A program made the translations under genes and the position numbers. Under the pieces are notes generated by a model that did no database searches, was not told the DNA's origin, and was given only the letters and a program-made list of their open reading frames with translations. This document shows, piece after piece, positions 20,476 through 39,375 of a stretch of 64,000 nucleotides of DNA. The stretch is from positions 186,001-250,000 of the forward strand of contig JABFGH010000004.1 in assembly GCA_013112585.1 (NCBI GenBank). The letters run 5' to 3'. The number at the start of each line of letters is the position of its first letter. Within the stretch, counting starts at the first letter, position 1. The stretch is from Ignavibacteriota bacterium (GTDB taxonomy: Bacteria > Bacteroidota > Ignavibacteria > Ignavibacteriales > Melioribacteraceae).

Positions 20476-20492
20476 TTAGCACAAAATTTGCA
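20476..20492 (+). promoter_or_regulatory. Sigma-54 promoter (-24/-12)
   Basis: TAGCAC at 20477-20482, five bases, then TTGCA at 20488-20492. The consensus is TGGCAC-N5-TTGCW, so there is one mismatch. Spacing is exact and it lies 51 bases before the first pseudopilin-like gene. A sigma-54 activator gene follows the operon at 23141. Confidence 0.75.
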
Positions 20493-21040: not shown

Positions 21041-21048
21041 GATTAAAA

Positions 21049-21669: not shown

Positions 21670-21678
21670 GAGTGAAAA

Positions 21679-22926: not shown

Positions 22927-22963
22927 ATAAAGAATTAAAAATCCCACAACCTGGTTAATGAAT

Positions 22964-22990
22964 AAAGCCCCAATCCAAAGTTGGGGTTTT
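22964..22990 (+). terminator. Terminator of the pseudopilin operon
   Basis: CCCCAA pairs with TTGGGG, extended by A-T and G-T pairs, with a seven-base loop and a TTTTATTTTT tail. It lies 38 bases past the third gene. Confidence 0.85.
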
Positions 22991-23140
22991 ATTTTTCCCA
23001 CTAGTTCACTCTTTGCAATACTTCATCGGTAAAATTTTCAAAAGTAAATATATTTTTATTTTTGAAGGTGTAAGAATTACCAGATTTTATTATATTGAAA
23101 ATAATTTTTTGTTATATTTGGCTTAAAACCAAGGGTGATT

Positions 23141-24490
23141 ATGGATAAAAATGCAAGAATACTTATTGTTGATGATGATGAAACACTTTGTTATCTGCTG
23201 AAAGAAGAATTAGTTCAGGAAGGGTTTACTGTTGATATTGTGCATGACGGCAGCGAAGCAATTGATAAGTTAAAATTTAAGTCGTACGACTTAATGCTGC
23301 TTGATTTGGAAATGAAAATTGTTCATGGTGAAGACGTACTGAAAACGGTAAATCAAAACTACCCATCCATTCAGGTGATAGTGCTTACCGGGAAAAGTGA
23401 AGTTAACACCGCCGTTGAATGTATGAGATTAGGCGCAAGTGATTTTTTAACAAAGCCGTATGAATTTGATCAATTATTAGTTAGAATTGAAAAGGCACTT
23501 GACTTAAAAGAACTTGTAATTGATAACACAGTTTTAAAATCGCAAATTGCCCAAAAAGCATCATCAGAAATAATAGGCAAGAGTCCAAAATTATTAGAAG
23601 TTACTGAATTAGCAAGAAGAGCCGCCGCTTCTCATTCAAATATTTTATTAGAAGGGGAGACAGGTACCGGAAAAGAATTATTTGCAGAATTTATTCACAA
23701 AAACTCACCAAGAAATAAAAAACCTTTTGTAGTAATTAATTGTGCCTCGCTGCCCGACCAGCTTTTAGAGAGTGAACTTTTCGGATATGAAAAGGGAGCA
23801 TTTACTGATGCCAAATCATCCAAGCAGGGTTTAGTTGAAATTGCCGAAGGGGGTACTTTATTTTTAGATGAAATCGGTGAACTTAGTTTAACCTTGCAGC
23901 CGAAACTTTTAAGATTTTTAGAAAATGGAGAGTTCAGAAGGCTCGGAGGTGTAACAACTTTAAAATCGGATGTTAGAGTTATCGGCGCTACTAATAAAAA
24001 CTTGATGGAGGAAGCGGAGAATAAAACTTTTAGAAGAGACCTTCTTTTCAGATTGAATGTAATAACTATTACAATACCTCCTTTAAGGGAACGAGGGAAT
24101 GATATTCTTCTGCTTGCAAAATTTTTCATTCAGAAAAAAATGCCTATTAAAACTAATAAAAAACTGAATGCAGAATCTGAAAATGTTTTATCGGCTTATA
24201 GCTTTCCGGGCAATGTAAGGGAGTTAGATCACACAATCGAACGTGCAATAATTTTTTCGGAAAATGATGAAATAAAAGTATCAGACTTAAACCTGCCCAA
24301 AGTTTCTTTCGGTGATGTGTCTGAAACCTTTAACGAAGCTGCTGAAGTTTTAAAACTTGATGAAATAGAAAAAATTCATATTAAGAAAGCCCTAAATCAC
24401 TATAATTGGAATAGGGAAGAAACGGCAAGAATGCTTGGTATCAGTCAGAAAACTCTTTATTCAAAAATTAAAAAATATAGTTTAAAATAA
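23141..24490 (+). CDS. Sigma-54 dependent response regulator (NtrC family)
   Basis: About 449 residues: receiver domain (1-120; phosphoacceptor Asp in LLLDLEM near 53, Lys in LTKPYEF), AAA+ domain (about 145-385; Walker A GETGTGKE near 172, GAFTDA loop near 220, Walker B GGTLFLDEIGEL near 241, arginine segment DLLFRLNVI), and a Fis-type helix-turn-helix at the end (NREETARMLGISQKTLYSKI). It activates sigma-54 promoters; the promoter at 20476 is the obvious local target. AAGGG six bases before the ATG at 23141 decides the start over a GTG at 23135. The loop reads GAFTDA rather than GAFTGA, a known natural variant. Confidence 0.95.
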   Translation: MDKNARILIVDDDETLCYLLKEELVQEGFTVDIVHDGSEAIDKLKFKSYDLMLLDLEMKIVHGEDVLKTVNQNYPSIQVIVLTGKSEVNTAVECMRLGASDFLTKPYEFDQLLVRIEKALDLKELVIDNTVLKSQIAQKASSEIIGKSPKLLEVTELARRAAASHSNILLEGETGTGKELFAEFIHKNSPRNKKPFVVINCASLPDQLLESELFGYEKGAFTDAKSSKQGLVEIAEGGTLFLDEIGELSLTLQPKLLRFLENGEFRRLGGVTTLKSDVRVIGATNKNLMEEAENKTFRRDLLFRLNVITITIPPLRERGNDILLLAKFFIQKKMPIKTNKKLNAESENVLSAYSFPGNVRELDHTIERAIIFSENDEIKVSDLNLPKVSFGDVSETFNEAAEVLKLDEIEKIHIKKALNHYNWNREETARMLGISQKTLYSKIKKYSLK

Positions 24491-24497
24491 ATTTTTT

Positions 24498-25598
24498 ATG
24501 CCGGAAATAAGGAACAGTAATAACAGAAAATTAGAGAAGCAGTTAAAAGCTGTTGCACATGATTTGAATAATATTTTGTCAAGTACAATGCACAGCATAA
24601 CCCTGCTCAAACAAAAAATTGAAAAGGGGACAGATGAATTTTCACTTGTTGAAATTATCGAAAGCAATTCGAATAGAGCAGCCGATATAATAGATGTTTT
24701 ATTAGATGATAAAAAATCAGTAACTCGCACCTTAAATGTTTCACGATTGTTAAACGAAGTTATACTCGCATTTTCCAGCACAATTACACCTGAATTAAAA
24801 ATTAAAACTGATATTGTAGGCGAGGTTTATAAAATATTTGGAATGCGGTCGAATGTTTACAGAATTATTATGAATCTGCTTGTTAATGCCAAGGAATCAA
24901 TTGAGGGAACCGGTGAAATTTATATTTCACTTTCTAACTTAAATAATAAAAAAGCGGCGGAAATTTTCCCTAATATCAGGGAAGCAAATTATATTCAATT
25001 AAGTATTTCTGATACCGGCTGCGGAATCTCGAAAGAAAATATTAGTAAAATTTTTGTTGAAGAATATTCTACTAAAAATAAAAGCGGCATATCGGGGCTA
25101 GGACTGAATATAGTTAAAGAAATTGTAACCTCTATGGGCGGCTACATTTTTGTTGAAAGCGAACTTGATAAGGGTTCAACATTCACGGTTCTGTTCCCCG
25201 AGTTTAAAAAGAAGGAAATGTCGAAAAAAATTGGTTTGGAAAAAACAATTTTGATTAGCGAGGATGATAAGATTTTATTAAAACTTTTAGCCGAGCTCCT
25301 CGAATCATACAATTTTAAAGTAATTAAAACAGAAGACGGCGAGGGCTGCTTACAAGAATTTATCAGTGAAAGCAAAATTGATTTAATTATTATAGATAAA
25401 AAAATGCCAAACCTTGATGGTATTGATTGTGTTAGGAAAATTAGAGAAATGAAAATTGATGTGCCTGTAATTTTATCGTCAGGTTCAAAGGGCGAGGTAA
25501 GCAGCGGGTTATTAAAAGAATTAAAAATTGAAAAGGTTTTACATAAGCCTTACGATTTTGAGCAAATGCTTTCCTTAATTGAAGAGTTAGTTTACTGA
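24498..25598 (+). CDS. Hybrid histidine kinase (HisKA-HATPase-REC)
   Basis: A 366-residue soluble kinase with no sensor domain: H-box VAHDLNNILSS near residue 18, ATPase domain with N-box NLLVNAKES, DTGCGIS and GLGLNIVKEI (about 105-235), and a C-terminal receiver with acceptor Asp in IIIDKKMPN near 297. It lies seven bases after the sigma-54 activator and is its likely partner, probably NtrB-like. The lack of a sensor part means it must receive its signal from another protein. Its end overlaps the convergent gene by 12 bases. Confidence 0.92.
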   Translation: MPEIRNSNNRKLEKQLKAVAHDLNNILSSTMHSITLLKQKIEKGTDEFSLVEIIESNSNRAADIIDVLLDDKKSVTRTLNVSRLLNEVILAFSSTITPELKIKTDIVGEVYKIFGMRSNVYRIIMNLLVNAKESIEGTGEIYISLSNLNNKKAAEIFPNIREANYIQLSISDTGCGISKENISKIFVEEYSTKNKSGISGLGLNIVKEIVTSMGGYIFVESELDKGSTFTVLFPEFKKKEMSKKIGLEKTILISEDDKILLKLLAELLESYNFKVIKTEDGEGCLQEFISESKIDLIIIDKKMPNLDGIDCVRKIREMKIDVPVILSSGSKGEVSSGLLKELKIEKVLHKPYDFEQMLSLIEELVY

Positions 25599-26270
25599 TT
25601 CTTTCTCATCTTCTGATTGGAGATTAATCATCTTTAAATTATTTAAGTAATCAATAAAAATTGGTTTTTTGATTGCACTCAACTTTTCCAGAATATCAAT
25701 TATATCATGTGTAGCTTTCTCAATAAATTCTACACGCTTAATTAAAAAGTCCTTTGCCCCTTCATCCTTATTCAATTCTCTTCTTATTGCCGCAGTTGAT
25801 AAATTAATTAAAGTTAAAGGCTGTTTTATTTCGTGATTTGCAGTTACAACAGTTGCATTAAAAGTTTTAACTTTTTCTAATTCAAGCAGTAAATTATTTG
25901 TTTCGCTAAATCGTAAGGCAGAATTAATTCGGGCAAGCATTTCATCGCGGTTGAAAGGTTTTTTTATGTAGTCGAATGCACCTGCGTCAAAACCCTCTTT
26001 AATATCTTCGGCATCAGTTAATGCTGTAACTAAAATTATAGGTATATTTTTAGTCTCGTCGTTCTTAACTAATTGTCGGCAAACATCAAAGCCGGAAATA
26101 TCAGGCATCATAATATCAAGTAAAATTAGATCGGGTTTTTCATCAGTTGCTTTCTGAATTCCTGTTTTACCTTCGTAGGCAGCAATTACTTCAAAGCCCG
26201 CACGCTTCAGTCTGTCTTGTAAAATAAAAACATTATCGGGCTGATCATCGACTACTAATATTTTTTTCAT
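25587..26270 (-). CDS. Response regulator with a C-terminal phosphotransfer-like helical domain
   Basis: A 227-residue protein. Residues 1-120 are a canonical receiver (DDQ near 8-10, Asp in LLLDIMMPD near 52, Lys in IKKPFNRD). Residues 125-215 form a helical region with an H-box, TANHEIKQPLTLI (His near 145), like a HisKA dimerisation and phosphotransfer domain, but no ATPase domain follows. It may act as a phosphate relay between the hybrid kinase and other receivers. It overlaps the kinase gene by four bases. The role is inferred. Confidence 0.85.
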   Translation of the reverse strand: MKKILVVDDQPDNVFILQDRLKRAGFEVIAAYEGKTGIQKATDEKPDLILLDIMMPDISGFDVCRQLVKNDETKNIPIILVTALTDAEDIKEGFDAGAFDYIKKPFNRDEMLARINSALRFSETNNLLLELEKVKTFNATVVTANHEIKQPLTLINLSTAAIRRELNKDEGAKDFLIKRVEFIEKATHDIIDILEKLSAIKKPIFIDYLNNLKMINLQSEDEKESVN

Positions 26271-29200
26271 TCAGTTTTAATTTCTTTTTTCTTTAAACTA
26301 TTCTCAATCTTTAACGCTATTGCAGAAGTATCGACAGGTTTGGTTAGTATATCATCAAATCCGTTGCGCTCAATTATCTCGATATCATCGAGCATTGCAT
26401 AGGCTGTCATTGCAACAACCGGTAAATCTGATATTGCATTATCACTTCGGATTTTTTTTATAGTTTCAAACCCATCCATTTTCGGCATCATAATGTCAAG
26501 TAATACTAAGTCCGGTTTTTGTCTGTCTATAGCAAGCAGGCATTCAATTCCGTTACCTGCCGTAAAAGTTTTATAACCTAAGTTACAAACAATTTCGCTA
26601 ACAGTAAATAAGGTATCTTCATCATCATCAACAATTAAAATTATTTCACCCGACGTTGATTCATCTGAATTATCGGTGTTTACTTTATTATAGCCGGAAG
26701 TATTTTTCATCCAGCTTTGATCTAAGTTTAATCGTTTTCGGATTAGCTTGAGAATATCAAGAGGGTGGTGCTGCTCCTTTAGAGTTAATTTTTTTATGGC
26801 TGTGCTTATTCTACTTATTTCTCCTTCGCTTAAGTTCTGAGATATGCTGATAATTAATGGTATGCCGCGTGTATTAGAATTTTGATTTAATAAATTAATG
26901 AAATTTAATTCATCAAAAGATGGAGCAATTAAATTCACTAAAATTAGTTCGGGTTCCGAATCTAATATAATTTTGAATGCTTCATCGTCTACAAAAATAT
27001 TAGTCAGATGGTATTCAGTTCCAATTTCATTTTGCAGTCTTTCAAATGCACCATCTCCAAAATCTATCGAAATAATATTTTTAACTTTATCCTGTTTAAA
27101 AATTTCTACGTTAGAAATTATTTCCCGTACCCGTTTGGGGTCAGTGTCTTTAAAAATATAATCAAATACATCAAATTCATAGCAGAGATCTTCTTCTTCA
27201 AAAATAGATGCGATTACAACCGGAACATTTACAGTAGCAGTATTATTTTTTAACTTCATCAATAAATCCCAGCCGCTCATATCCTCTAAGTCTAAATCAA
27301 TTGTAATTAAGTCGGGTATATTTTTCGTTAGGTAATCCCAACCATCTTTACCGGTATGACAAATTGTTGTTTCGTATTCTTCCGAATCTAAATATTTCTC
27401 CAGAGTTCTATTCGTTTCGATGTCTCTGCAAATTAATAGAATTTGCTTTTTAGAGTTTACATCCTGATGGTTATAAATAATTTGTGAATTCGATTCCTGA
27501 TCATTTTCATCATGAATAACCTGTGCAGAGTTGGGCAGCACAAGAGTAAATGTTGAACCCTCATTTAATTCGCTGTCAACAGAAAGTTCACCTTCCAAAA
27601 GCTCGGCATAGCGCTTACAAATTGCTAAACCCAAACCGGCACCGCCGTATTTACGGGATGTGCCATTATCTACTTGTCTGAACTCCTCAAATATTACGCT
27701 TTGATTATCATGTTCAATTCCAATTCCTGAATCAACTACCTGGAACTCAACAGTATCATTTTCCATTATACCAATTTTAAGTTTTACAAAACCTTCATCA
27801 GTAAATTTAATAGCGTTGGTAATTAAATTTAAAACAATATGTTCGATTTTACTTTTATCACTTTTTAGTTTTATATCAAAGTTAGTAGGGTACTCTACTG
27901 AAAATTTAATATCCTTATCGTAAATTAATGGTTCTACCGAAGCACTAATTTGTTTCACAAAATCGCTTAAATCTATCAGCTCGCTTTCAATTTCAATTTT
28001 TCCAAAATCAAGTTTTGAAAATTCAAGTATGTTATTAATAATATTAAGCAGCCTTCTTCCGTTTCTTAAAATTACTCCGTTTCTTTCTTTCGTTTTATTA
28101 AGTATTCCTTTTTCTTTAAGTACTAATTCCGATAAACCTAAAATTGAATTTAAAGGAGTTTTCAGTTCGTGGGACATTGTAGCTAAAAACTGCGATTTAA
28201 CTCTTGCAGATTCCAATGCCTTTTGTCTTTCAATTTCAAGTTCTTCTGCATTTGCCGTAAGCTCCGTGTGCAGTGCAATAAGTTTTTGGTTCTGCTCGGT
28301 TATATGTTCGTTCTGATCTTGATAGTCCTTATTCAACTCACTTAATTCTCTAACCAGTTCTTCGGCATGTTCAAATGCCGCAGCATTGGTTATACCAACC
28401 GCCAGTTGTTCATGAATATTTTTTAAGTAGCTAAGCACATTAACCAATGGCTGGGATACAGAGCCTAACTCTAATATTCCTATTACCTTTTTATTGTAAA
28501 CGATAGGGAAGGTGATTAGGTAACTGATTTTTATTTCGGCAGCAGCCGATTTTATAACCGGTTGATATTCAGAAAATTTATGCTCGTATGCCTCCTGGTT
28601 TTCAAGAACATTTTTATATAAATCAATTTCCTGGTTCTTAGTTACAAAGTTTTTTCCAACTCCATTATGCGCAAGCAGTCTTAAGTTCTCATCCTCTTCA
28701 ACAAGGTATAAAACGCCGTAGTTTAAATTTGTACTTGATATAATTTTTGTTAAAGCCGCTTCCGAAACTTCCGAGAGAGTAGGGTTTTCATTTATTAACA
28801 TCAGAAACTGAGAGTAGTCTTTTTGATCGGAGTCCTTACTTTTTAATTCATCCAGCATCTGATTAAAGGCTATGCCCAGCTTGCCGATTTCATCATTTGT
28901 AATAATTTCTGCCCGGTGATCCAAATCTCCGCTGCCTATTATTTCAACACTTTCAGATAGATTACTAATTTGTTTTCTTAGTCTGGTAGTTAATAACAGT
29001 ACCAGCACTAATGATAAAAGGATACCCGAAGTAATTAGAACTACGATAATGATATTCATTGTAGTTCTAAATTTTTGAGCTTCCATTGATTTATTAAATA
29101 TTAGAAAACTAAAATTATCTGAAGGAGTTAAAATATTTTTAGGTGAATATTTTGTAGCTAAAAAGTCCGAAGATTCCAATTCTTCGATATAAACATATTT

Positions 29201-29791
29201 AGCATCTTGTCTATCTACATTTTCTATTGAATTTGAAATTGGACTATCTAATTGTGCATTAAGGTATTTATTGGATAGGGAAAAGGGTTTATTGTTGATA
29301 AGCAGAGCAATTTGAATATTTATATCTTCGCTAATTCTATTAAGAAAATTTTCATTAATTATTTTACCGTAATAAACAGTTTCGCCGTTCTCCATTTCCT
29401 CATAATTAAAAACTATATTAGGAAAATTATTAACAAACTCGCTGATCGATTTAATTCTTGTACCGTCACTTTTCATTTGTTTATTGGCGTAATAAACAAA
29501 ATCCAATTCGGAATTATCCTTTACAGTAAATAGAAAATCGATATTCTTCGTATTGTAATTCCGATTATTAAAATCTTTTTGCTTTCTCTTTAGCTCTTCA
29601 AATTCATTCTCCATTTTTGTCAGTTCATTTTTAAACCTAAAAACAAAATCATTTTTAGAATAAAGAAGAGCATTATTTTCTTGTGACAATAGCAAGGTAT
29701 TTGCCGTCGAATGATAGATAATAGTTGAAGCCGCTGAAACTACTACAACTATTAGGAAAGTAATTAGCAGTAATTTAGTACTTATTTTCAT
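26267..29791 (-). CDS. Large membrane hybrid histidine kinase with three receivers
   Basis: An 1174-residue kinase. Two membrane helices (about 6-27 and 243-267) flank an extracytoplasmic sensor. Then follow HAMP (about 268-320), a GAF domain (335-480), a coiled coil (485-530), HisKA with MSHELKTPLNS near 542, the ATPase domain (650-760, DSGIGI and GGAGLGLAI) and three receivers (about 780-895, 900-1015, 1045-1165). The third is canonical. The first lacks one of the acidic pair (LLICRDIE), and the second has Asn in place of the acceptor Asp (LILVNLIAPS), so it is probably inactive. It is next to the receiver gene and the secretin of the filament machine. Confidence 0.95.
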   Translation of the reverse strand: MKISTKLLLITFLIVVVVSAASTIIYHSTANTLLLSQENNALLYSKNDFVFRFKNELTKMENEFEELKRKQKDFNNRNYNTKNIDFLFTVKDNSELDFVYYANKQMKSDGTRIKSISEFVNNFPNIVFNYEEMENGETVYYGKIINENFLNRISEDINIQIALLINNKPFSLSNKYLNAQLDSPISNSIENVDRQDAKYVYIEELESSDFLATKYSPKNILTPSDNFSFLIFNKSMEAQKFRTTMNIIIVVLITSGILLSLVLVLLLTTRLRKQISNLSESVEIIGSGDLDHRAEIITNDEIGKLGIAFNQMLDELKSKDSDQKDYSQFLMLINENPTLSEVSEAALTKIISSTNLNYGVLYLVEEDENLRLLAHNGVGKNFVTKNQEIDLYKNVLENQEAYEHKFSEYQPVIKSAAAEIKISYLITFPIVYNKKVIGILELGSVSQPLVNVLSYLKNIHEQLAVGITNAAAFEHAEELVRELSELNKDYQDQNEHITEQNQKLIALHTELTANAEELEIERQKALESARVKSQFLATMSHELKTPLNSILGLSELVLKEKGILNKTKERNGVILRNGRRLLNIINNILEFSKLDFGKIEIESELIDLSDFVKQISASVEPLIYDKDIKFSVEYPTNFDIKLKSDKSKIEHIVLNLITNAIKFTDEGFVKLKIGIMENDTVEFQVVDSGIGIEHDNQSVIFEEFRQVDNGTSRKYGGAGLGLAICKRYAELLEGELSVDSELNEGSTFTLVLPNSAQVIHDENDQESNSQIIYNHQDVNSKKQILLICRDIETNRTLEKYLDSEEYETTICHTGKDGWDYLTKNIPDLITIDLDLEDMSGWDLLMKLKNNTATVNVPVVIASIFEEEDLCYEFDVFDYIFKDTDPKRVREIISNVEIFKQDKVKNIISIDFGDGAFERLQNEIGTEYHLTNIFVDDEAFKIILDSEPELILVNLIAPSFDELNFINLLNQNSNTRGIPLIISISQNLSEGEISRISTAIKKLTLKEQHHPLDILKLIRKRLNLDQSWMKNTSGYNKVNTDNSDESTSGEIILIVDDDEDTLFTVSEIVCNLGYKTFTAGNGIECLLAIDRQKPDLVLLDIMMPKMDGFETIKKIRSDNAISDLPVVAMTAYAMLDDIEIIERNGFDDILTKPVDTSAIALKIENSLKKKEIKTE

Positions 29792-29795
29792 TTTT

Positions 29796-30158
29796 CTATT
29801 TTTGTAATACTGAACGAATTGTAATGATTAGTTCATCAAGATCGTAAGGCTTACCAATAAAGCCGTCTGCTCCAAGGCGGGAAGAATCCATAGCGCTTTT
29901 TACATCTGCATAAGCTGTAAGAACAATAATTTTTGAGCTGTTGCCAGACTCTTTTAATTTTTTAAGAATGTAAAATCCATCATTACCGGGTAATTTGAGG
30001 TCGAGCAAAATTATGTCGACCTCTTTCTTATTTTCTAAAAATTCAAATGCTGATTCTGCTTGTGTTACATAATCAGTTGTGTAACCAACTTCCTTAAGTT
30101 CTTCAGATAATAATGTGCAAAGACTTACATCATCATCAACAATAAGAATAGATTCCAT
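29796..30158 (-). CDS. Single-domain response regulator
   Basis: A 120-residue CheY-like receiver: acidic pair DDDV near 7-9, acceptor Asp in IILLDLKLPG near 53, Thr in VLTAYAD and Lys in IGKPYDL. It has no output domain, so it acts by protein contact. It lies six bases after the secretin gene and four before the big hybrid kinase, which suggests it couples the kinase to the filament machine, as PilG or PilH do in other pili. Confidence 0.93.
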   Translation of the reverse strand: MESILIVDDDVSLCTLLSEELKEVGYTTDYVTQAESAFEFLENKKEVDIILLDLKLPGNDGFYILKKLKESGNSSKIIVLTAYADVKSAMDSSRLGADGFIGKPYDLDELIITIRSVLQK

Positions 30159-30164
30159 TTCAGC

Positions 30165-31421
30165 TTAATCCTCGCTGTCATCTGATTTGTTTTTGAACTT
30201 GTAATTGTCAATCCATGCATTATGAGCTTTTATCTCCTCTTTTATCGGATTGCCTTTGTCAAGCGTAATTCTATCCTTAAGAGTAGGAATGATCTCTGTT
30301 TTAATTAAAATTACTACTTCTTTTTTGGCAGTGCTAACAGCATCATATCCGGTTAAATATCTTATACCAAATACCCACCAAGGCAAATCTTTTAAGAATG
30401 GGATACCTCTTCTTGTTGAGATATCTTCATTTACAAACAATCCGCCAATTACAGTTTCCTCGCCATTCAGCATAAGTACTTCTGTAGAGGCTGTTTGTTT
30501 GAATATTTCAGTTGTTATCTGTCCCGGAGTTGCAGAACTTCTTTCAACATCAATTTTTAACAGAACATAATCAACACCATCTTCTGAATATAGATGAGGA
30601 ACAACTTCTATTATTGTTCCGGTTGAAATGAATACATCTGTAACGTTGCCGGCAAAATCTTTCTGTTTAATTGAAATATCGGAACCAATTTGAATACGTC
30701 CTTTATTTTTATCCCTTACCTTTATAGAAGGGGATGCAATAATTTCACCCAGTTCTTCAGTTTCAAAAAACTTAAATAATGCCGTCGCCGTGCCATCCCA
30801 ATCACCCATAGAAAAACTTACATCGTCGGGACCAATTGTAAAATCCGGAGGGCGTTCTGTTTGCTGCAATGCTCCTGCACCGCCTGCATTTTCCTGCTGC
30901 TGTGCTTCCTCAGCAAATGTTCTTAATCCGGAGCCAACATTAAAACCATCGTTTGAAAGCATCCACTCCCAGTTAATACCTCGTTCGGTAAATTCACTGG
31001 TATTTGCTTCAAAAAAGACAGCGGAAATTTTCACCTCGCGTGAATTTACCGGGGCGTAAATATCGCTTGCAAGCATTGAAGCCGGATCAACTTTACTTTT
31101 AACCACAATTACAGTTTCCCGCTCTTCATAAACTAAATTATTGTACTGAACAATAATCAGCAGAGCTTTCATATACGGCATTCTGTCAATCTCAATACCG
31201 ATTGGTGTGGTTAGGTTAACAGTTGATACAATTTTTTTTCCTGTTAGTCTTTCACTAATTCCGCTCATTACTCCAATTGCCTGATCAAATGGAATATTTT
31301 CAGAAAGTGTTATTAACTCTTCAGGGTTAACATTTCCGCTTAGCTGCTTCTCGAGCTGAGGCTGTGAGTATGCAGGTATTGCGATGATAATTAACAACAG
31401 ATATACTAGTATTGCTTTCAT
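30165..31421 (-). CDS. Secretin-like outer membrane channel (PilQ/GspD family)
   Basis: A 418-residue exported protein (signal about 1-19, ending AYSQP). The N-terminal half resembles the short STN/N0-N1-type domains (ITLSENIPFDQAIGVMSG, EERETVIVVKS). The C-terminal part holds the secretin core: EIIASPSIKVRDKNKGRIQIGSD, VPHLYSEDG, and ETVIGGLFVNED followed by IPFLKDLPWWVFG. It is short for a secretin, with few periplasmic domains. It would let the filament or its products cross the outer membrane. It is sixth in the machine operon after PilC. Confidence 0.88.
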   Translation of the reverse strand: MKAILVYLLLIIIAIPAYSQPQLEKQLSGNVNPEELITLSENIPFDQAIGVMSGISERLTGKKIVSTVNLTTPIGIEIDRMPYMKALLIIVQYNNLVYEERETVIVVKSKVDPASMLASDIYAPVNSREVKISAVFFEANTSEFTERGINWEWMLSNDGFNVGSGLRTFAEEAQQQENAGGAGALQQTERPPDFTIGPDDVSFSMGDWDGTATALFKFFETEELGEIIASPSIKVRDKNKGRIQIGSDISIKQKDFAGNVTDVFISTGTIIEVVPHLYSEDGVDYVLLKIDVERSSATPGQITTEIFKQTASTEVLMLNGEETVIGGLFVNEDISTRRGIPFLKDLPWWVFGIRYLTGYDAVSTAKKEVVILIKTEIIPTLKDRITLDKGNPIKEEIKAHNAWIDNYKFKNKSDDSED

Positions 31422-31444
31422 TTGAATTCTCTATGTTTATTTTT

Positions 31445-32311
31445 TTATTCTATTCCAAGTGAAACTTTTTCTATAATGCCACCTTTATTCAAAATGAATT
31501 TTACTTCATTTTTCTTATGGTCAACATCAGTAACATAGCCTAAGTAAACTTTATCTCCTTTGTTAAGCACATAAGTTGAGTCTGAATTACCTGAGAGGAA
31601 TGCACCTTCAGGAAGCAGTGCTAACAATTGAGCTGTTTGAACATCAAGCAGGTTGTCTGTGTTCGGCGGTATTTCTTTTCTAATAAGTGGGAAGAACACA
31701 TCGTAAATTCTATTAGGCACAATATTGTTTTCCTGAAATTCTGTTGATGCATAACGGTCATTATCTGAAAAGTAAACCGATACGCTCATATCATAACCGA
31801 CTAAATAGCTCGGTCTCCCTTCTTCGTCAACTTCTACTATGTTGTTCATGTTAGAGGTAGTTACTTTTTTGAGACCTTTACTTCTTTCGATTGCATAAAT
31901 CAATTTATACAGATCGTTAAAAGTTGCTGTGCCGAATAGCCTATATTCGTAATGGCGGAAATGTTCATCTTCCAGTTGTTCTCTAAATTCAATATTTACA
32001 AATGATTTTGATGAAAAGAGAGAACTGATATTTACAACAAAGTTATAAAAGTCATACTGGGTAAGATTTACAGGAATATTGAATTTTCTTAAATCTAAAA
32101 TTGAATCAAGTTTTGCTACTTCCACATTTAGGTTATCTAATTGAGCAAGCAGTTCCTTTGTATCGTAAGCATTTAGATTTAATGCCTCCATCTCTTCTTC
32201 CTTCTCAGCAATTTTTCCTTCTTGATAGAAGAAAGTGAATGCCGAACCGCCGATTATTATTGCAATTAATATTGCAAGTAGAATTAATGTGTTTTTTAAT
32301 TTTCGGTCCAT
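31445..32311 (-). CDS. PilO-PilP-like fusion, inner membrane alignment protein
   Basis: A 288-residue protein with one helix (about 8-30), a coiled coil (30-75), a PilO-type ferredoxin-like domain (to about 185) and a C-terminal PilP-like beta domain (about 220-288; LLPEGAFLSG, DSTYVLNKGDKVYLGYV, FILNKGGIIEKVSL). In classical systems PilO and PilP are separate and join PilN to the secretin. Here they appear to be one protein. It lies one base after the PilMN gene. Confidence 0.78.
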   Translation of the reverse strand: MDRKLKNTLILLAILIAIIIGGSAFTFFYQEGKIAEKEEEMEALNLNAYDTKELLAQLDNLNVEVAKLDSILDLRKFNIPVNLTQYDFYNFVVNISSLFSSKSFVNIEFREQLEDEHFRHYEYRLFGTATFNDLYKLIYAIERSKGLKKVTTSNMNNIVEVDEEGRPSYLVGYDMSVSVYFSDNDRYASTEFQENNIVPNRIYDVFFPLIRKEIPPNTDNLLDVQTAQLLALLPEGAFLSGNSDSTYVLNKGDKVYLGYVTDVDHKKNEVKFILNKGGIIEKVSLGIE

Positions 32312-32312
32312 C

Positions 32313-33860
32313 TTAGTTTGACCAGTCTTTTGTTAGGTTAAAAGTTAAGTTAAATGCAAAAGTTTTTTTATCTCTTAATGGTTCATAAAAAACGCTTTGC
32401 AGGGTTGCCGGACTTTCAAATTCAGCAAATTCCGTAAGGGCTTTGCGCGATCTTGAAAATCCTTCTACACGAATTTGTGTGTCATTAATTTTGCCAATTT
32501 TTGTAATCCAGAAATTTCTTTTGCTTGCTACAAACTCAGAAATTTTACTAACTGCTTTACTCCAAACTTCAGTTCCTTCAGTTGCATTATCCAGTATTGC
32601 CTGGCTCTCTTCAAAGGTGGATATCTTTTGTTCGAGAGGAATTATCTGATCAATTATTGTCTGGTTTTCAGCTCTTATCTGAGTTAGTCTCTGTATCTCA
32701 CTATCTATTTCACTCATTTGTTTATAGTTTGAAAGTACCGAGTAAGTAAAGAAAAATGTTGCCGCAAACAGTAGTGGGAAAATTGCATAACTATGCCATC
32801 CAAGCTGTATTGCTTTTTGATTTTCATGAATGTAGCGGGGGAGTATATTTATGCCTTCAATTTTCTTATCTATCTCAATAAAGTAATCTTCCGCTGCTGC
32901 AATAGGCACTACAAATGATGTTAAGTTTTGTGAGGATTCTTCATCAAGTTTTGAAGTATCGATATTATCAAACTTCAAGGCATTTACATCAGCTTCAGGA
33001 AAAGTACTATAAAATGAAAGTATAAAGTTTTCCGATGTATCCTCGCCGCATAGCACCACGTTATCTAATCGCGGGATATCACCTTTTTCCATTTCCAATA
33101 AAATTTTAGAAAAATAAACATCATAGGAGTAGGAACTTTCCGTACCTATTTCCAATCGTGCACCAATGTGCTTAAGTTTATCTCCTTCTAAAAAGATAAG
33201 GCTGCTGTATTCCTTTTCTGTATATACAATTAATGTTAAATCTTCGGGGAAGAATTTCATATTCCTCGAAACGAAATTGGAAATAGCTACATCAGCACTT
33301 TTAATGGTTGGAATTTTGTAATACCGCCTGTTATTAAACAGCGCAAGTGAATCAACAAAGTTAACAGCTTGCTGCGGACCATCAATAAATACGCATAGCA
33401 GAGATTTATCATTAAACTTTATGTAGTCTATTGAGTCTCTGCTGACGGAAATATTTTTAGTTGCTGAAATATCTTTTATTATTTCATCAAGCAGCTGTTT
33501 CTTGTCGAGAGTTATATCACCTTCAAAAATATGGTAATTTAATCCCGGTTCGCTAATAACAGGAATAAATTCGGATTTGTTTAGTTGAAATCCGCCGAGT
33601 GAATTGGCAATAAAACTGATATCTGCGTTATCTAAAGTACTACTATCTTCACTGTCAAAGTCAACATCCTCAAACGAGAGGTCGCTGCCGGCACCGGAAG
33701 AATAATCATTTACTCCGTCATCAACTTCGGCAAATTCAACTTCGCCTTTGTTAACATGTGCCGATAGTGTTTGATGAAGCGAAATACCATTTTTTGTTTT
33801 TGATAACACAGCGAGTTTAATATCGCCGGATTCATAATATACACTTATTACTGGTTTCAT
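32313..33860 (-). CDS. PilM-PilN-like fusion (GspL-like)
   Basis: A 515-residue protein. Residues 1 to about 340 look like an actin-like PilM/GspL cytoplasmic domain with an acidic linker (about 55-75; VDFDSEDSS). A single helix at about 355-378 (YAIFPLLFAATFFFTYSVL) is followed by a PilN coiled coil and periplasmic ferredoxin-like domain (EGFSRSRKALTEFAEF). It would tie the cytoplasmic ATPase to PilO-PilP. It abuts pilT without a gap and is one base from the PilOP gene. Confidence 0.78.
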   Translation of the reverse strand: MKPVISVYYESGDIKLAVLSKTKNGISLHQTLSAHVNKGEVEFAEVDDGVNDYSSGAGSDLSFEDVDFDSEDSSTLDNADISFIANSLGGFQLNKSEFIPVISEPGLNYHIFEGDITLDKKQLLDEIIKDISATKNISVSRDSIDYIKFNDKSLLCVFIDGPQQAVNFVDSLALFNNRRYYKIPTIKSADVAISNFVSRNMKFFPEDLTLIVYTEKEYSSLIFLEGDKLKHIGARLEIGTESSYSYDVYFSKILLEMEKGDIPRLDNVVLCGEDTSENFILSFYSTFPEADVNALKFDNIDTSKLDEESSQNLTSFVVPIAAAEDYFIEIDKKIEGINILPRYIHENQKAIQLGWHSYAIFPLLFAATFFFTYSVLSNYKQMSEIDSEIQRLTQIRAENQTIIDQIIPLEQKISTFEESQAILDNATEGTEVWSKAVSKISEFVASKRNFWITKIGKINDTQIRVEGFSRSRKALTEFAEFESPATLQSVFYEPLRDKKTFAFNLTFNLTKDWSN

Positions 33861-35090
33861 TTATCCAATCGCTTTTAGTAATTGTAACATTCTTGTTTTA
33901 TTATTTGAGTATGCAAGAGCATTTTCACTTGAGATTTTTCTTTTCTTGTATAATCTTATCAAATCCTGTTCCATTGTTATCATTCCCTGCGGTCCGCCCT
34001 GTGTAATCATGCCGTAAATTTCACTTGTATTGTTGTTTTTAATTGCAGCTTTTACCGATGGTGTGACGACAAGCACTTCTTTAGCCAATATCCGCTTGCC
34101 ATCCAGAGATTCGACTAATTTCTGAGAAATGACTGTTGTTAGTACATCCGCCAATCTATTCCTTACACGCTCCTGTTCAACAGGGTTTACTTCGGCAATA
34201 ATTCTGTCTATAGATTCTACCGCAGATGAGGTGTGAAGTGTAGAAAATACTTTATGACCTGTATCTGTTACCTCTAAAGCGGCTAAAATTGTCTCCGGAT
34301 CTCTCATCTCACCAATTACAATAATATCCGGATCCTGACGTAAAGACTGTACAACACCGTCTTTAAATGAAGGAACATCGCGTCCAACCTCTCTATGCCT
34401 AATTATGCACGCTTCGGATTGATGAACATACTCGATAGGGGAGGCGATAATTACAACATGCGCAGGGTCAAATTTATTATGATAGCCTATTACTGAGTCA
34501 AGTGTGGTAGATTTACCGGAACCTGTAATACCGGTAACAAGTGTTAAACCGAATTTTACATAGTTATGACTCATCGATTTCATTGCATAAGGATGAAATT
34601 CAAGAGCCTCAATAGGCATAACTGATACCGCAATAGAACGCATATTGAGTGCAAGTGAATCTAAGTCAAAATAGGCATCAGCTCTAAATCGAACGTCTTT
34701 TTTCCCTTTCTCGTAATAGAAAGAATAACTGAAGTCAATGTTTCTATCTTTAAGAAGCATTTTACGCTGATTACTTGTAAGTAAACTAAGGATTAGTGTT
34801 GTTGTTTCATCCGTCGTAAACTGCGGAAGGTCTTTAACTCTTTCCTTTTTACCAAACACTCTAAACCAGATAAATGCATTGTTGCCATGACCGCCGATTT
34901 CCACATCGGATGCAGTTCGCTCAATCATTAAACTGAGAATTTTATTCGCCAGTTTATGAAGCATCAATTTATCTTCGGGGTTAAGGTTTTCTATATTGTC
35001 CGATATGTAGCTTACCCGTTCGGGTCCTAGTACAATTTCCGGAATTTGTTTGGAAAAGTTCTCTAATATTTCTTTTGCTGATCCTAACAT
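33861..35090 (-). CDS. PilT-like retraction ATPase
   Basis: A 409-residue hexameric secretion ATPase. Walker A GITGSGKSTTLD near residue 190, Asp box IIASPIEYVHQS near 217, Walker B DIIVIGEMRDPET near 255, His box STLHTSSAVESIDR near 280. It lacks the zinc-binding Cys cluster of PilB, as retraction ATPases do. It drives filament retraction, and with PilB suggests a dynamic pilus rather than a pure secretion system. Its end touches the PilMN gene. Confidence 0.9.
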   Translation of the reverse strand: MLGSAKEILENFSKQIPEIVLGPERVSYISDNIENLNPEDKLMLHKLANKILSLMIERTASDVEIGGHGNNAFIWFRVFGKKERVKDLPQFTTDETTTLILSLLTSNQRKMLLKDRNIDFSYSFYYEKGKKDVRFRADAYFDLDSLALNMRSIAVSVMPIEALEFHPYAMKSMSHNYVKFGLTLVTGITGSGKSTTLDSVIGYHNKFDPAHVVIIASPIEYVHQSEACIIRHREVGRDVPSFKDGVVQSLRQDPDIIVIGEMRDPETILAALEVTDTGHKVFSTLHTSSAVESIDRIIAEVNPVEQERVRNRLADVLTTVISQKLVESLDGKRILAKEVLVVTPSVKAAIKNNNTSEIYGMITQGGPQGMITMEQDLIRLYKKRKISSENALAYSNNKTRMLQLLKAIG

Positions 35091-35162
35091 TTTGGGCGTA
35101 CTTCTCTTATTTTCTGATTGATTTATATCACAATATTATATTCGAAAATTTTTTTTGTAAGT

Positions 35163-36953
35163 TTATTCATCCATTGTTGAAGCAAGTACTTCTTCTAATG
35201 ATGTTAAGCCGTCTTTTACCTTTTCAAGCCCTGATTCCCGCAGACTTAAAGTTCCATCTTTTTTAGCTTGTCTTCTAACAGCTTCTTCATCAACTTCATT
35301 ACCTGAATTAACAATAAGTTCTCTAATTTCCTTTGTAAAATAGAGTGCTTCGTGAATTGCCATTCTGCCTTTGTAACCTGTTCTATTACATTTTTCGCAG
35401 CCATTGGCTTTGTACATCTCTACTTGCTTCCATTCATCAATATCGAGATTTGCAGCTTTTAATAAATCCTCGTCAATTTGTTCAACTCTCTTTTTGCAGT
35501 CAGAGCATAATCTTCTTACCAATCTTTGAGCTACAATTATATTAATTGCATAAGAAATCAAAAACGGTTCAACACCCATTTTGTATAAACGTGCAACTGC
35601 ACTGGGTGCATCATTTGTATGGAGTGTTGAAAATGTTAGGTGACCGGTATTAGCAAGTTTAATTGCAGTTTCTGCTGTTTCCTTATCACGCATCTCACCA
35701 ACTAAAACTATATCAGGGTCATGCCTAAGTATAGATCTAATCGCCTGCTCAAAATCCATTTTGTAACCAATTTTAAGCTGGCGTGCACCTTCAATAACAT
35801 ACTCAACCGGGTCTTCTACCGTAAGTACATTTTTGGTCGGATCAATTACCTGGTAAAGTGCGGCAACAAGAGTAGTTGATTTACCGCTTCCGGTAGGTCC
35901 TGTCATAATCACCATACCCTGCGGCTGTGAAATTGACTTTTGAAATGCTTTTAATGAATAACCGGTTAGTCCAATTTTGCTTATATCTTTAAGTACTTTA
36001 CGGTCATCTAAAATTCTAATTACAATTGTTTCAAATTTATTTTTAAGTTCTGTTCCTACCATCGGTAATACAGAAACTCTGTAACGAATTATATTATGAT
36101 CAATTTCACGCTGAATAAAACCATCTTGAGCGGCTTCTCTTTCAAATCTGTCCATTCCTTTTGCACGGTCTTTAACAACAGCCATAACAGCTTCGGGCAT
36201 TGTATTTTCTTGCGTATGCCAAAGCATCAGTTTACCGTCAATTCTAAAATGGATTTCAGTTTTGTTGCCGCTTTTGGGTACTACGTGAATATCACTCACG
36301 CCCTTACGTACGCCTTCAACAAGTGCTGCTTCAATTAAATTTACAAGCGCACTTTTATTAATTTCAGCGTCAAGTTCTTCTTCGTTTAAGTTTGCTTCAT
36401 CCGGTTCAATTGATAATTCCTCATCGGATTCTTCAATCATTTTCAGATATTCATTTTCCGGGGGAACTAAAACTTGAATTAGTTTATCATAATCTTTTTT
36501 ACGAAGAAAATTTATTTCATACTTTTTAGCGTTTATGGAATATGCAATTTTACTTAATGATCTATCGGTAGGATCAATTGCCGCTAAAATTAATTTGTCG
36601 CGCATTCTGCCGTTAAAACTGAAGGGGATTACCTTATGAGTTAGAAGCATTTGTTTAACTTCATCACTCTGCGAGTCAATCATCTTTTTAATTTCTTCAA
36701 TTTTGGATTCAGGAAGCTCATCTAAATTTATGTTGAGTTCCTTAAAGGCATACAGAACGGCTACTTCTCTAAATATTAAATCATGATCAAAACCAAACTC
36801 ATCAACCAAAATTTGTGCTAAATTTCTTTTAAGTTTGTTCTGATCTTGTGCTTTTATTTGAAGTGATTTTTCTAAAAGTTCAGAATCTATTATTCCTTTT
36901 TTAAGAAGCAGGTAACCAATTTTATCCGTCATTTCCAGTTGAGTATCAAACAT
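35163..36953 (-). CDS. PilB/GspE assembly ATPase
   Basis: A 596-residue ATPase. N-terminal MshE-type domain (about 1-160), then Walker A GPTGSGKSTTL near 356, Asp box, Walker B DPDIVLVGEMRDKET near 411, His box STLHTNDAPSAVARL near 436, and the zinc tetracysteine CSDCKKR and CEKCNRTGYKGR near 484-527. It polymerises pilin subunits. MshE-N domains bind cyclic di-GMP in some relatives; I cannot confirm the motif. It lies four bases after pilC. Confidence 0.93.
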   Translation of the reverse strand: MFDTQLEMTDKIGYLLLKKGIIDSELLEKSLQIKAQDQNKLKRNLAQILVDEFGFDHDLIFREVAVLYAFKELNINLDELPESKIEEIKKMIDSQSDEVKQMLLTHKVIPFSFNGRMRDKLILAAIDPTDRSLSKIAYSINAKKYEINFLRKKDYDKLIQVLVPPENEYLKMIEESDEELSIEPDEANLNEEELDAEINKSALVNLIEAALVEGVRKGVSDIHVVPKSGNKTEIHFRIDGKLMLWHTQENTMPEAVMAVVKDRAKGMDRFEREAAQDGFIQREIDHNIIRYRVSVLPMVGTELKNKFETIVIRILDDRKVLKDISKIGLTGYSLKAFQKSISQPQGMVIMTGPTGSGKSTTLVAALYQVIDPTKNVLTVEDPVEYVIEGARQLKIGYKMDFEQAIRSILRHDPDIVLVGEMRDKETAETAIKLANTGHLTFSTLHTNDAPSAVARLYKMGVEPFLISYAINIIVAQRLVRRLCSDCKKRVEQIDEDLLKAANLDIDEWKQVEMYKANGCEKCNRTGYKGRMAIHEALYFTKEIRELIVNSGNEVDEEAVRRQAKKDGTLSLRESGLEKVKDGLTSLEEVLASTMDE

Positions 36954-36957
36954 GCTG

Positions 36958-38301
36958 CTATCTCATCATCGGGTTTTTCGGACTAATAGTTGCTGTTTCT
37001 GCTGAAACTAATGTTAACAGAATCATCACAATCATAATAACCATTGCAATAAATACTTGAACAAGTTCGATTATGTTTTTCATTCTAAACACGGTCTCAC
37101 TTTCGTAATAGTTGGCGAGCTGTTTAGCTGTATTTTTTATTGTACCGGTTTCTTCGGCTGAGTGGAATCTTGAAATTGCCGTTTCGGTAAACACCCCGCT
37201 GGCTTCAAACGATTCAGTTAACCCGACTCCTTTTTTAAGCATAAGCGGAATTGCAATATTTTTAATTTGCTGTTCAAAGTATTTGTTGCCAGTTGCTTCT
37301 GCTGCAATTCTAATTGGTTCAATACTTTCTGCGGCGCCGCTATACAAGGTGTAAAAAACTCGGCAGAATACTTCAATTAATGTTTTATGAACAAGCGAAC
37401 CAATTACCGGCATTTTAAGCAGGTGTTTATCAACAAACAGCCGTCCTTTTTGGGTTGCAGCAAACCGCCAAAATAGAATAGGCGGAATTATAACGAATAA
37501 AGAAATTAGTACTGGATTGGCTATTAAAAAATCACTCATATCAAGAGTGAAGGCTGTCATTGGGGGTAAATCAATATCAAATTTTTGAAATAATTTTGCC
37601 GTTGCCGGAAAAATATATGCTACGTAAAACAACACTGCGAGAAATAAAACGAATAAGGTAATGAATGGAGTTATTAACGCACTCCTTAAATCTTTTCTAA
37701 ACTGATTTCTTCTCTCTAAAAATTTTGCTGTTGCCCGGTATATTTCTGCCATGTTACCGCTCTTGGATGCAAGTCCAAGCATATATGCGGTAAATTTGCC
37801 AAATATGTTTTCGTATTGTAAGAATACTTTCTGGCTATCGGCGCCTTTTTTAAGATCGTTATTTATCTGCTTAAGTGTTTCTCTTAAAGTTTTATTTTCT
37901 AAATCGTTCACAAGTAGAGTCATAATTTCACTGTACGGCAGTTTCTGTTCTAATAATTCGGAACTAATTTTTACGAATGATAATATATCTTGTGCTGGCG
38001 GTTTTGCTGTATATTCAAAAAGATATTTGTTTACTGAAACTACATTGTATCCAAGCTTTGTTAATGCCTTCTCTACCTCTTCTTTGCTGAAAGCTTTTTG
38101 TTCGCCCTTGACAGGTTTTTCATTCCCTTTTCTAATCTTATAAATGAATGTGCTTTTCTTTTCAACTTTTTTGAGCTTAAGTTTTTTCTTTTCAACAATT
38201 TTACTAATCCTTGTTTTTCCTTCCTTAAATGAAGGAGCATTTAGATTACCTGTTATTGTTTGTCCGTTTAAGTTTACTGCACTAAATCTTATCTCAACCA
38301 T
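36958..38301 (-). CDS. PilC/GspF inner membrane platform protein
   Basis: A 447-residue protein with the GspF duplication: helical cytoplasmic domain (about 110-200), membrane helices near 210-232 and 262-282, and a C-terminal helix near 412-435 (VFIAMVIMIVMILLTLV), with the conserved FHSAEETGTIKNTAKQLANYYE. The N-terminal 100 residues are a basic, Lys-rich domain. PilC is the platform that PilB turns to add pilin. It follows a hairpin 26 bases upstream and begins the machine part of the operon. Confidence 0.92.
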   Translation of the reverse strand: MVEIRFSAVNLNGQTITGNLNAPSFKEGKTRISKIVEKKKLKLKKVEKKSTFIYKIRKGNEKPVKGEQKAFSKEEVEKALTKLGYNVVSVNKYLFEYTAKPPAQDILSFVKISSELLEQKLPYSEIMTLLVNDLENKTLRETLKQINNDLKKGADSQKVFLQYENIFGKFTAYMLGLASKSGNMAEIYRATAKFLERRNQFRKDLRSALITPFITLFVLFLAVLFYVAYIFPATAKLFQKFDIDLPPMTAFTLDMSDFLIANPVLISLFVIIPPILFWRFAATQKGRLFVDKHLLKMPVIGSLVHKTLIEVFCRVFYTLYSGAAESIEPIRIAAEATGNKYFEQQIKNIAIPLMLKKGVGLTESFEASGVFTETAISRFHSAEETGTIKNTAKQLANYYESETVFRMKNIIELVQVFIAMVIMIVMILLTLVSAETATISPKNPMMR

Positions 38302-38327
38302 GGCTCTTTGCTTTTTATTTTGATTAG

Positions 38328-38363
38328 AAAAGGGCTGTTAAGTATTTCTACCTAACAGCCTTT
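38328..38363 (-). terminator. Hairpin between pilin-like gene and pilC
   Basis: GGCTGTTA pairs with TAACAGCC, with flanking A-T pairs and a 12-base loop, followed on the minus strand by CTTTTC. It lies between the last pilin-like gene and pilC, where a partial terminator would keep pilin mRNA well above machine mRNA. Confidence 0.7.
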
Positions 38364-38427
38364 AATTATGAATTGCTAACAGATTGTGAAATAACAAGTC
38401 TGTTGGAAGTTCAGGGGAATAGAGGAA

Positions 38428-38820
38428 TTAACTTCTTCCCTCAGTAAATACTGAATTCACTGAATCCTTAGTAACTGTTGTTACAATCCTCCAGTCATAA
38501 TCGCCATCGGCTGGTAGACCTGTAATAGTAACTTGTGCATTGGCACCGCCAGTAGCACCACTTGCTGCATAAGAACCATTAGCATTAGATAATAAAGCTG
38601 CTGGAACTGAAAATCCTACAAAGCTGTTACCGCCACCTGCCATTGCAGTAGGTTTTCTGTAATACTGCTGTGCCATAGCACCGATTGTTGTACAGTCTGA
38701 TACTACCGCATCTTTAGCTGCTTCTTCTGAACTGGCTGTAAATACATTGATACCAACTACTACTGCAATACCAACTATGATAACGCCCAATACGATAAGT
38801 AATAATTGTTGTTGACCCAT
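38428..38820 (-). CDS. Pilin-like subunit A
   Basis: A 130-residue protein: MGQQQ, then a hydrophobic helix (about 5-28, LLLIVLGVIIVGIAVVVGI), an amphipathic part with AMAQQYYRKP, a GGG turn and a small beta-rich domain. The layout is that of a type IV pilin, but there is no leader peptide of prepilin type and no Glu at position 5. AGGAG lies before the ATG. It shares its first 20 residues almost exactly with subunit B at 38995. It is likely the main or second filament subunit of the machine downstream. Confidence 0.75.
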   Translation of the reverse strand: MGQQQLLLIVLGVIIVGIAVVVGINVFTASSEEAAKDAVVSDCTTIGAMAQQYYRKPTAMAGGGNSFVGFSVPAALLSNANGSYAASGATGGANAQVTITGLPADGDYDWRIVTTVTKDSVNSVFTEGRS

Positions 38821-38994
38821 TGTGAAACTCCTATGTTATTTGAATAAAGTTATTTTGTTGATGTTTATTTTATTTGCTAATTACTATTAAATAAATGTGC
38901 CAAAGTATTTTGTTCTGTTTTTATTCATTTTTTAAGTTTTTTTAACATTTTTTTTTGACTTAGCATTTTCTACATGTAAGTATTGCTTAACACT

Positions 38995-39375
38995 TTAATG
39001 AATTATTGCTGTTTGGATAGTTTTAGGTGTTACCGTTACCGATATGCTTACTGAATCGTTCCCGGTTACAACATCATTGCCTATTCCGGTTATAACAATA
39101 TCGTCAGCGTTTACAACAGCTTCATATCTGCCGGATGCAGTTACAACCAAATCTGCAGGAATTTTCCAGTCTGTAAATTTTCTTCCGCCGCCAAGTAATG
39201 ATCTTGGTCTCTGATAATATTGCTGAGCCATAGAAGCAAGATTAAAGGCTTCGTTAATCATGTTGTCGCGCTTTGCTTCTACTGCACTTGTCTTGAAAAG
39301 GGTTATTCCCAGTATTACCGCAATTCCTACTACGATAATTCCGAGTACGATAAGTAGAAGTTGTTGTTGTCCCAA
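38995..39375 (-). CDS. Pilin-like subunit B
   Basis: A 126-residue paralogue of subunit A: same start (MGQQQLLLIVLG), same SMAQQYYQRP segment and GGG turn, diverged C-terminal domain with VTVTPKT. The start codon is TTG (39375), with GGAG nine bases upstream, while subunit A uses ATG. This suggests lower translation of B. The N-terminus again lacks leader and Glu 5. It is the first gene of the filament gene series. Confidence 0.75.
   Translation of the reverse strand: MGQQQLLLIVLGIIVVGIAVILGITLFKTSAVEAKRDNMINEAFNLASMAQQYYQRPRSLLGGGRKFTDWKIPADLVVTASGRYEAVVNADDIVITGIGNDVVTGNDSVSISVTVTPKTIQTAIIH

What the first reader, a model, noticed from the sequence alone, without database searches (positions are those of the whole stretch)
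30165..39375. Type IV filament machine whose subunits lack prepilin leaders and Glu 5
Two small paralogues (38428-38820, 38995-39375) begin MGQQQLLLIVLG and lie just ahead of PilC, PilB, PilT, PilMN, PilOP and secretin genes. Known type IV pilins need a charged leader ending in Gly and a Glu at position 5 for processing and packing. Neither is present, and no PilD gene is in the window. If these are the subunits, the filament may be unprocessed or cut in an unknown way, with Gln replacing Glu.
Basis: partly seen in the sequence, partly recalled or inferred. Interest (0 to 1): 0.75.

Follow-up and report, generated by a model that had tools for sequence, protein, structure and literature searches.

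The report
Type IV pilus with leaderless pilins
Ignavibacteria-group bacteria carry a complete type IV pilus machine whose pilin subunits appear to be made already trimmed, with no leader and no glutamate 5; most of these genomes also lack the prepilin peptidase, until now counted as a core part of such machines.

Summary
The two MGQQQ proteins have no leader: in-frame stops lie one and five codons upstream. In 207 unique relatives the start codon always sits at this spot, Gly2 and Gln5 are invariant, and no charged residue occurs in residues 1-24. For both AlphaFold models the top structural matches in a second-look alignment are all type IV pilins, and the genes sit directly ahead of pilC-pilB-pilT-pilMN-pilOP-pilQ in Ignavibacteria, with the same machine in Kryptonia, Calditrichota and KSB1. 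The window also holds three further proteins built the same way (20543-22926), read here as probable leaderless minor pilins.

The host genome does have PilD, but in T2SS-like loci with their own classical prepilins. Of 379 near-complete genomes of the class, 202 have the leaderless pilin and only 15 of those have PilD; closed genomes are among those without it.

Best reading: a type IV pilus that has dispensed with leader cleavage and hence with PilD. Assembly and the true N-terminus are inferred, not shown. The 2013 Melioribacter roseus genome paper found pilT, Q, B and C but no pilA or pilD; these genes probably fill that gap. Novelty: new variant of a known kind.

The parts
38995..39375 (-). 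Leaderless pilin paralogue 1 (MGQQQLLLIVLGIIVVG), TTG start
   Evidence: pilin fold
38428..38820 (-). Leaderless pilin paralogue 2, probable major pilin (MGQQQLLLIVLGVIIVG)
   Evidence: pilin fold
36958..38301 (-). PilC, inner-membrane platform
   Evidence: Pfam T2SSF 6e-29
35163..36953 (-). PilB, assembly ATPase
   Evidence: Pfam T2SSE 1.3e-104, TIGR02538 419 bits
33861..35090 (-). PilT, retraction ATPase
   Evidence: TIGR01420 322 bits, over cut-off
32313..33860 (-). PilM-PilN-like fusion
   Evidence: position and size; weak match to Amuc_1101 PilM-like family, 0.0011
31445..32311 (-). PilO-PilP-like fusion
   Evidence: position, size and N-terminal membrane helix; no profile support
30165..31421 (-). 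PilQ secretin
   Evidence: Pfam Secretin 2.8e-23
29796..30158 (-). Stand-alone receiver protein, conserved with the operon
26267..29791 (-). Hybrid histidine kinase, conserved with the operon
20543..21040 (+). Leaderless PilV-like protein (MNTGQMMITLG), probable minor pilin
   Evidence: weak profile link to the leaderless major pilins
21049..21669 (+). Leaderless PilW-like protein (MGFSTLIDILG), probable minor pilin
   Evidence: NCBIfam PRK10557 at 0.03
21679..22926 (+). Leaderless PilX/GspK-like protein (MGGKAAILLVLG), probable minor pilin
   Evidence: DUF4900 1.2e-4, below cut-off
23135..24490 (+). NtrC-type sigma-54 response regulator next to the V-W-X genes (PilR-like by position)
24498..25598 (+). 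Histidine kinase with receiver domain next to the regulator
20477..20492 (+). Sigma-54-like site (TAGCAC-N5-TTGCA) 51 bases ahead of the V-like gene
38887..38902 (-). Sigma-54-like site (TGGCAC-N5-TTTAA) 67 bases ahead of the second pilin gene

Best explanation
This is a type IVa-like pilus machine whose subunits are translated in ready-to-assemble form. The pilins carry no class III leader: the initiator Met (or Gly2 after methionine excision, which a Gly at position 2 should favour) stands where PilD would normally create the new N-terminus. Inferred steps: the hydrophobic N-terminal helix acts as a signal anchor with the N-terminus inside; PilB and PilC extract the pilin into a filament that leaves through PilQ; PilT retracts it; the leaderless V, W and X proteins prime or cap it. 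No leader removal and no PilD-type N-methylation is needed, so PilD could be lost wherever no other prepilin-using system remained. Without Glu5 there is no salt bridge to the neighbour's N-terminal amine; the invariant Gln tract probably supplies uncharged hydrogen bonds instead. Shown here: gene structure, conservation, predicted fold, synteny, absence of PilD. Inferred: assembly, N-terminal state, role of Gln.
For: Leaderless start in 207/207 unique proteins, G2 and Q5 invariant, no charge in residues 1-24. Pilin fold for both paralogues: the top 7 and top 11 second-look structural matches are all type IV pilins. PilC found close to the pilin in 65 of 80 GTDB loci, usually with pilB-pilT-pilMN-pilOP-pilQ behind it. 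Pilin and T2SSF co-occur in 79 of 97 genomes, 10 lack both; 3 of the 5 T2SSF-only genomes have pilC at a contig end. Of 379 near-complete genomes 202 have the pilin and 15 of those have PilD, so 187 have the pilin without PilD, including single-contig genomes G007, G043, G058, G069, G072 and G290; the complete chromosome of G105 also lacks it. Classical N_methyl prepilins over cut-off in only 7 of 97; in the loci read, PilD and classical prepilins lie together in T2SS-like loci. Conservation as in pilins: residues 1-5 98%, 6-27 82%, 81-130 40%. In the V family residue 5 is Glu in L110 and L136 and Gln in most others, which suggests Glu5-to-Gln exchange.
Against: No filament, proteomic or N-terminal data. 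Plain Foldseek gave no significant match, and the Z-scores (about 6 to 10.5) are middling for a long helix plus sheet. Sequence profiles do not link the major pilins significantly to classical ones. The structural register (model n = mature pilin n-3) would put Leu8, not Gln5, at the place of Glu5. Minor-pilin assignment of V, W and X rests on linkage and architecture, with weak profile support. A peptidase of another family cannot be excluded by sequence.
Confidence: 0.8

Rival explanations
1. The MGQQQ proteins are the pilins but are cut after Gly2 by an unrecognised peptidase, Met-Gly being an extremely short leader; the new N-terminal Gln may cyclise.
For: Gly2 is invariant in 207/207, as Gly-1 is in classical leaders; some genomes, this one included, do have PilD.
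Against: No Peptidase_A24 over cut-off in 187 of 202 near-complete genomes, closed ones included; two-residue leader without positive charge, against 6-26 residues in known pilins (PMC4471445); no conserved peptidase-like gene near the operon. Gly2 is also what methionine aminopeptidase prefers.
Confidence: 0.12
2. The machine uses other, classical pilins and the MGQQQ proteins are accessory membrane proteins not in the filament.
For: This genome has classical prepilins and a PilD; sequence similarity of MGQQQ proteins to known pilins is not significant.
Against: The classical prepilins lie in T2SS-like loci with their own GspE and GspF and are over cut-off in only 7 of 97 relatives, whereas the MGQQQ genes track the machine. 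Both MGQQQ models match pilins best.
Confidence: 0.05
3. The system builds a short periplasmic pseudopilus for secretion rather than a surface pilus; the subunits are leaderless all the same.
For: PilC also scores as GspF and PilB as GspE; no surface pilus has been reported from these bacteria in the papers read.
Against: A true PilT family ATPase is in the operon, usual for retractable pili; a separate T2SS-like locus exists in the same genome.
Confidence: 0.15

Closest known systems
Type IVa pilus (PilA/PilE with PilB, PilT, PilC, PilMNOP, PilQ)
   Same: Motor, platform, alignment and secretin genes in one operon; predicted pilin fold with long N-terminal helix and four-stranded sheet; sigma-54-like sites and an NtrC-type regulator near by
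   Different: No leader, no Glu5, no PilD in the locus and in most genomes none at all; PilM-N and PilO-P fused
MSHA-type pilus loci (PMC6668835)
   Same: Locus without its own prepilin peptidase
   Different: MSHA genomes carry a peptidase elsewhere (PMC6668835) and their pilins have classical leaders (general knowledge)
Archaeal type IV pilins
   Same: Glu5 often absent (PMC4471445)
   Different: Archaeal pilins keep a class III signal peptide and a peptidase, except Nanoarchaeota where none was detected
Type IV pilus genes of Melioribacter roseus (PMC3534657)
   Same: Probably the same machine: pilT, pilQ, pilB and pilC reported, pilA and pilD not found
   Different: That paper judged the set incomplete; here the missing pilin is proposed
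T2SS-like system in the same genomes (C20, C39 of this genome)
   Same: Homologous ATPase, platform and secretin
   Different: Has PilD and prepilins with ordinary leaders, Glu5 in three of four

Membership tests
Type IV pilin | Class III leader of 6-26 residues ending in Gly | tested here: not met
   At most Met-Gly precedes the polar tract and helix in 207/207
Type IV pilin | Glu at mature position 5 | tested here: not met
   No acidic residue in residues 1-24 of any of 207
Type IV pilin | About 21 mainly hydrophobic residues at the N-terminus | tested here: met
   Residues 6-27, no charged residue up to residue 24
Type IV pilin | Fold: about 50-residue helix and four-stranded antiparallel sheet | tested here: met
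   Predicted models; first 7 and first 11 VIA-align rows are all type IV pilins. Prediction only
Type IV pilin | Processing by a Peptidase_A24 prepilin peptidase | tested here: not met
   Gene absent from 187 of 202 near-complete genomes that have the pilin; present in this genome, action on MGQQQ untested
Type IV pilin | N-methylated first residue | not testable with these tools
   Needs mass spectrometry
Type IVa pilus system | PilB, PilC, PilT and secretin encoded together | tested here: met
Type IVa pilus system | PilM, PilN, PilO, PilP | tested here: inconclusive
   Two fusion-sized ORFs in the right place; weak or no profile matches
Type IVa pilus system | Minor pilins of PilV, PilW, PilX type | tested here: inconclusive
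   V, W, X families linked to the machine in several phyla; profile support weak
Type IVa pilus system | Surface filament that extends and retracts | not testable with these tools
   Needs microscopy
Type II secretion system | Pseudopilins with class III leaders and no PilT-type ATPase | tested here: not met
   PilT present; no leaders

The most novel reading that the evidence does not exclude
Most of a class of bacteria, plus relatives in Calditrichota and KSB1, runs type IV pili with no prepilin processing at all: major and minor pilins are translated without leaders, Glu5 was exchanged for Gln, and the prepilin peptidase was then lost in most lineages. Leader cleavage and Glu5 would then not be general requirements for type IV filament assembly.
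Probability: 0.65. Interest if true: 0.88.

Novelty: new variant of a known kind. Interest (0 to 1): 0.8.

Why it matters
[quoted passage not shown] Glu5 is held to drive subunit docking by pairing with the neighbour's N-terminal amine (PMC5059446). A natural system without these would show which steps of the pathway are really required. It would also explain why surveys that look for leader motifs or PilD miss pili in these bacteria, as in the Melioribacter roseus genome paper (PMC3534657).

Tried and rejected
Longer leader from an upstream start: rejected, in-frame stops. Divergent PilD behind weak PF01478 hits: the hits in G038, G042 and G007 were read and do not look like PilD; other sub-threshold hits were not read one by one. 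Foldseek against the PDB gave no significant match. HMM search of PDB sequences gave nothing significant, though 2 of the 7 weak hits were pilins. hhalign of the leaderless major pilins to the pseudopilins of the host's T2SS-like locus was not significant. Genomes with T2SSF but no MGQQQ hit: G018, G086 and G095 have pilC at a contig end; G047 has only the T2SS-like system; G092 stays unexplained. Conserved peptidase gene near the operon: none among gene families shared by six or more loci.

Full report
Observation. The first (38995-39375) starts with TTG one codon after an in-frame TGA; the second (38428-38820) starts with ATG five codons after an in-frame stop, behind AGGAG. Nothing longer than MGQQQ... 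can be translated. Neither protein matches a Pfam or NCBIfam family.

Conservation. Homologues were found in 82 of 97 relatives and, in a GTDB scan, in records named Ignavibacteria, Melioribacteraceae, Kryptonia, Calditrichaeota and KSB1. Among 207 unique proteins the start codon (174 ATG, 20 TTG, 13 GTG) is always at the same position; Gly2 and Gln5 are invariant and Gln4 is present in 206; no D, E, K or R occurs in residues 1-24; the median distance to the upstream in-frame stop is four codons. Mean identity falls from 98% (residues 1-5) and 82% (6-27) to 40% in the head (81-130), the pattern of pilins, whose N-terminal helix packs the filament core.

Fold. AlphaFold2 gives a helix to residue 55 and a four-stranded sheet for both paralogues, mean pLDDT 90 and 88. 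Foldseek alone found nothing significant. VIA-align on Foldseek's candidates put only type IV pilins in the first seven rows for one paralogue (Z 9.1 to 6.4, next unrelated row 5.5) and in the first eleven for the other (Z 10.5 to 5.9, next unrelated 5.6; best match N. meningitidis PilV, 86 residues at 1.9 A). Z-scores of this size alone would not settle it; that the top of both lists is made up of pilins only is what makes the match convincing.

Machine and synteny. The operon pil1-pil2-pilC-pilB-pilT-pilMN-pilOP-pilQ, followed by a receiver protein and a hybrid kinase, recurs: PilC is found with the pilin in 65 of 80 loci, and many of the others are short contigs or extra pilin copies. Pilin and T2SSF occur together in 79 of 97 genomes and are both absent in 10. 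Of five genomes with T2SSF only, three have pilC at a contig end, one (G047) has the T2SS-like system, and one (G092) is unexplained.

Prepilin peptidase. The host genome has two Peptidase_A24 genes, each in a T2SS-like locus with GspE, GspF and four prepilins with ordinary leaders, three of them with Glu5. Over 379 genomes selected for at least 90% completeness, the leaderless pilin occurs in 202 and PilD over cut-off in 15, all of them among the 202. So 187 genomes have the pilin and no recognised PilD; several are single contigs. The control search rings in 12 of 14 genomes, archaea included, so the model reaches far. Three weak hits that were read are other proteins. In the 97 relatives, classical N_methyl prepilins over cut-off occur in seven, nearly the same genomes that have PilD.

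Minor pilins. A survey of conserved neighbours brought up three more families, which are present in the window at 20543-22926. V-like (MNTGQMMITLG...), W-like (MGFSTLIDILG...) and X/GspK-like (MGGKAAILLVLG...) begin only a few residues before a hydrophobic stretch, a median of four to five codons after an in-frame stop. In Kryptonia (L119, L122) they lie between pilB and pilT; in a Calditrichaeota locus (L130) behind pilB; in KSB1 (L136) after pilQ. In the V family residue 5 is Glu in L110 and L136 and Gln in most others, the best hint that Gln replaced Glu5; all 15 W members keep an acidic residue at 6 or 8; X has none, as in GspK (general knowledge). Profile support for the three as minor pilins is weak: V against the leaderless major pilins E 1.8e-4 (probability 48%), W against the T2SS-like GspG E 3.6e-4 (37%), both pairwise, and W against PRK10557 0.03. 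They are called probable.

Regulation. Sigma-54-like sites lie ahead of many pilin genes: 66 of 158 upstream regions score at least 8 of 10 against 2.7% of simple shuffles, although in the window as a whole such sites are no commoner than chance. An NtrC-type regulator and a kinase follow V-W-X, as PilR and PilS serve classical pilins (general knowledge).

Mechanism. The pilins appear to be translated in mature form. Gly2 predicts removal of the initiator Met, leaving Gly-Gln-Gln-Gln before the helix (inference from known methionine aminopeptidase preference). In classical pili Glu5 pairs with the free amine of Phe1 of the neighbour (PMC5059446). Gln cannot make that salt bridge; amide hydrogen bonds, perhaps with a modified N-terminus, are the likely substitute. 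The exact register is open: the structural alignments put mature residue 1 at residue 4 of the model. Leader loss probably came before PilD loss, because several KSB1 and Calditrichaeota genomes have leaderless pilins together with PilD.

Literature. The Melioribacter roseus genome paper found pilT, pilQ, pilB and pilC but not pilA or pilD (PMC3534657). A review defines type IV filaments by the leader and the peptidase and names only Nanoarchaeota as lacking a detectable peptidase (PMC4471445). MSHA loci lack a peptidase but their genomes have one (PMC6668835). No paper on leaderless pilins turned up in the held library; subscription journals and preprints are mostly not in it.

Noticed in passing
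window 20543-25598: Second cluster of the same system outside the given coordinates: three leaderless minor-pilin-like genes followed by an NtrC-type regulator and a kinase.
   Followed up: yes
L188, L186, L185, L207 (host C22:6729-7058): The pilin head domain without its N-terminal helix occurs in other proteins, among them a lipoprotein of this genome and one 1415-residue protein with three copies.
   Followed up: partly
L201 and L213 (host contigs C20 and C39): A T2SS-like locus with PilD and classical prepilins is present twice, nearly identical and at the same contig position.
   Followed up: partly
L110 8177-8665, L136 18886-19380: V-like proteins with Glu at residue 5 counted from Met1, where most relatives have Gln.
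   Followed up: partly
window 20477-20492 (+), 38887-38902 (-): Sigma-54-like sites ahead of leaderless pilin genes, enriched across relatives.
   Followed up: partly
G372, G373, G262, G361, G369: Some genomes carry 8 to 10 matches to the leaderless pilin family, on several contigs.
   Followed up: no
L194 (G092:C13:17000-22500): Machine present with no leaderless pilin detected although pilC is not at a contig end.
   Followed up: no
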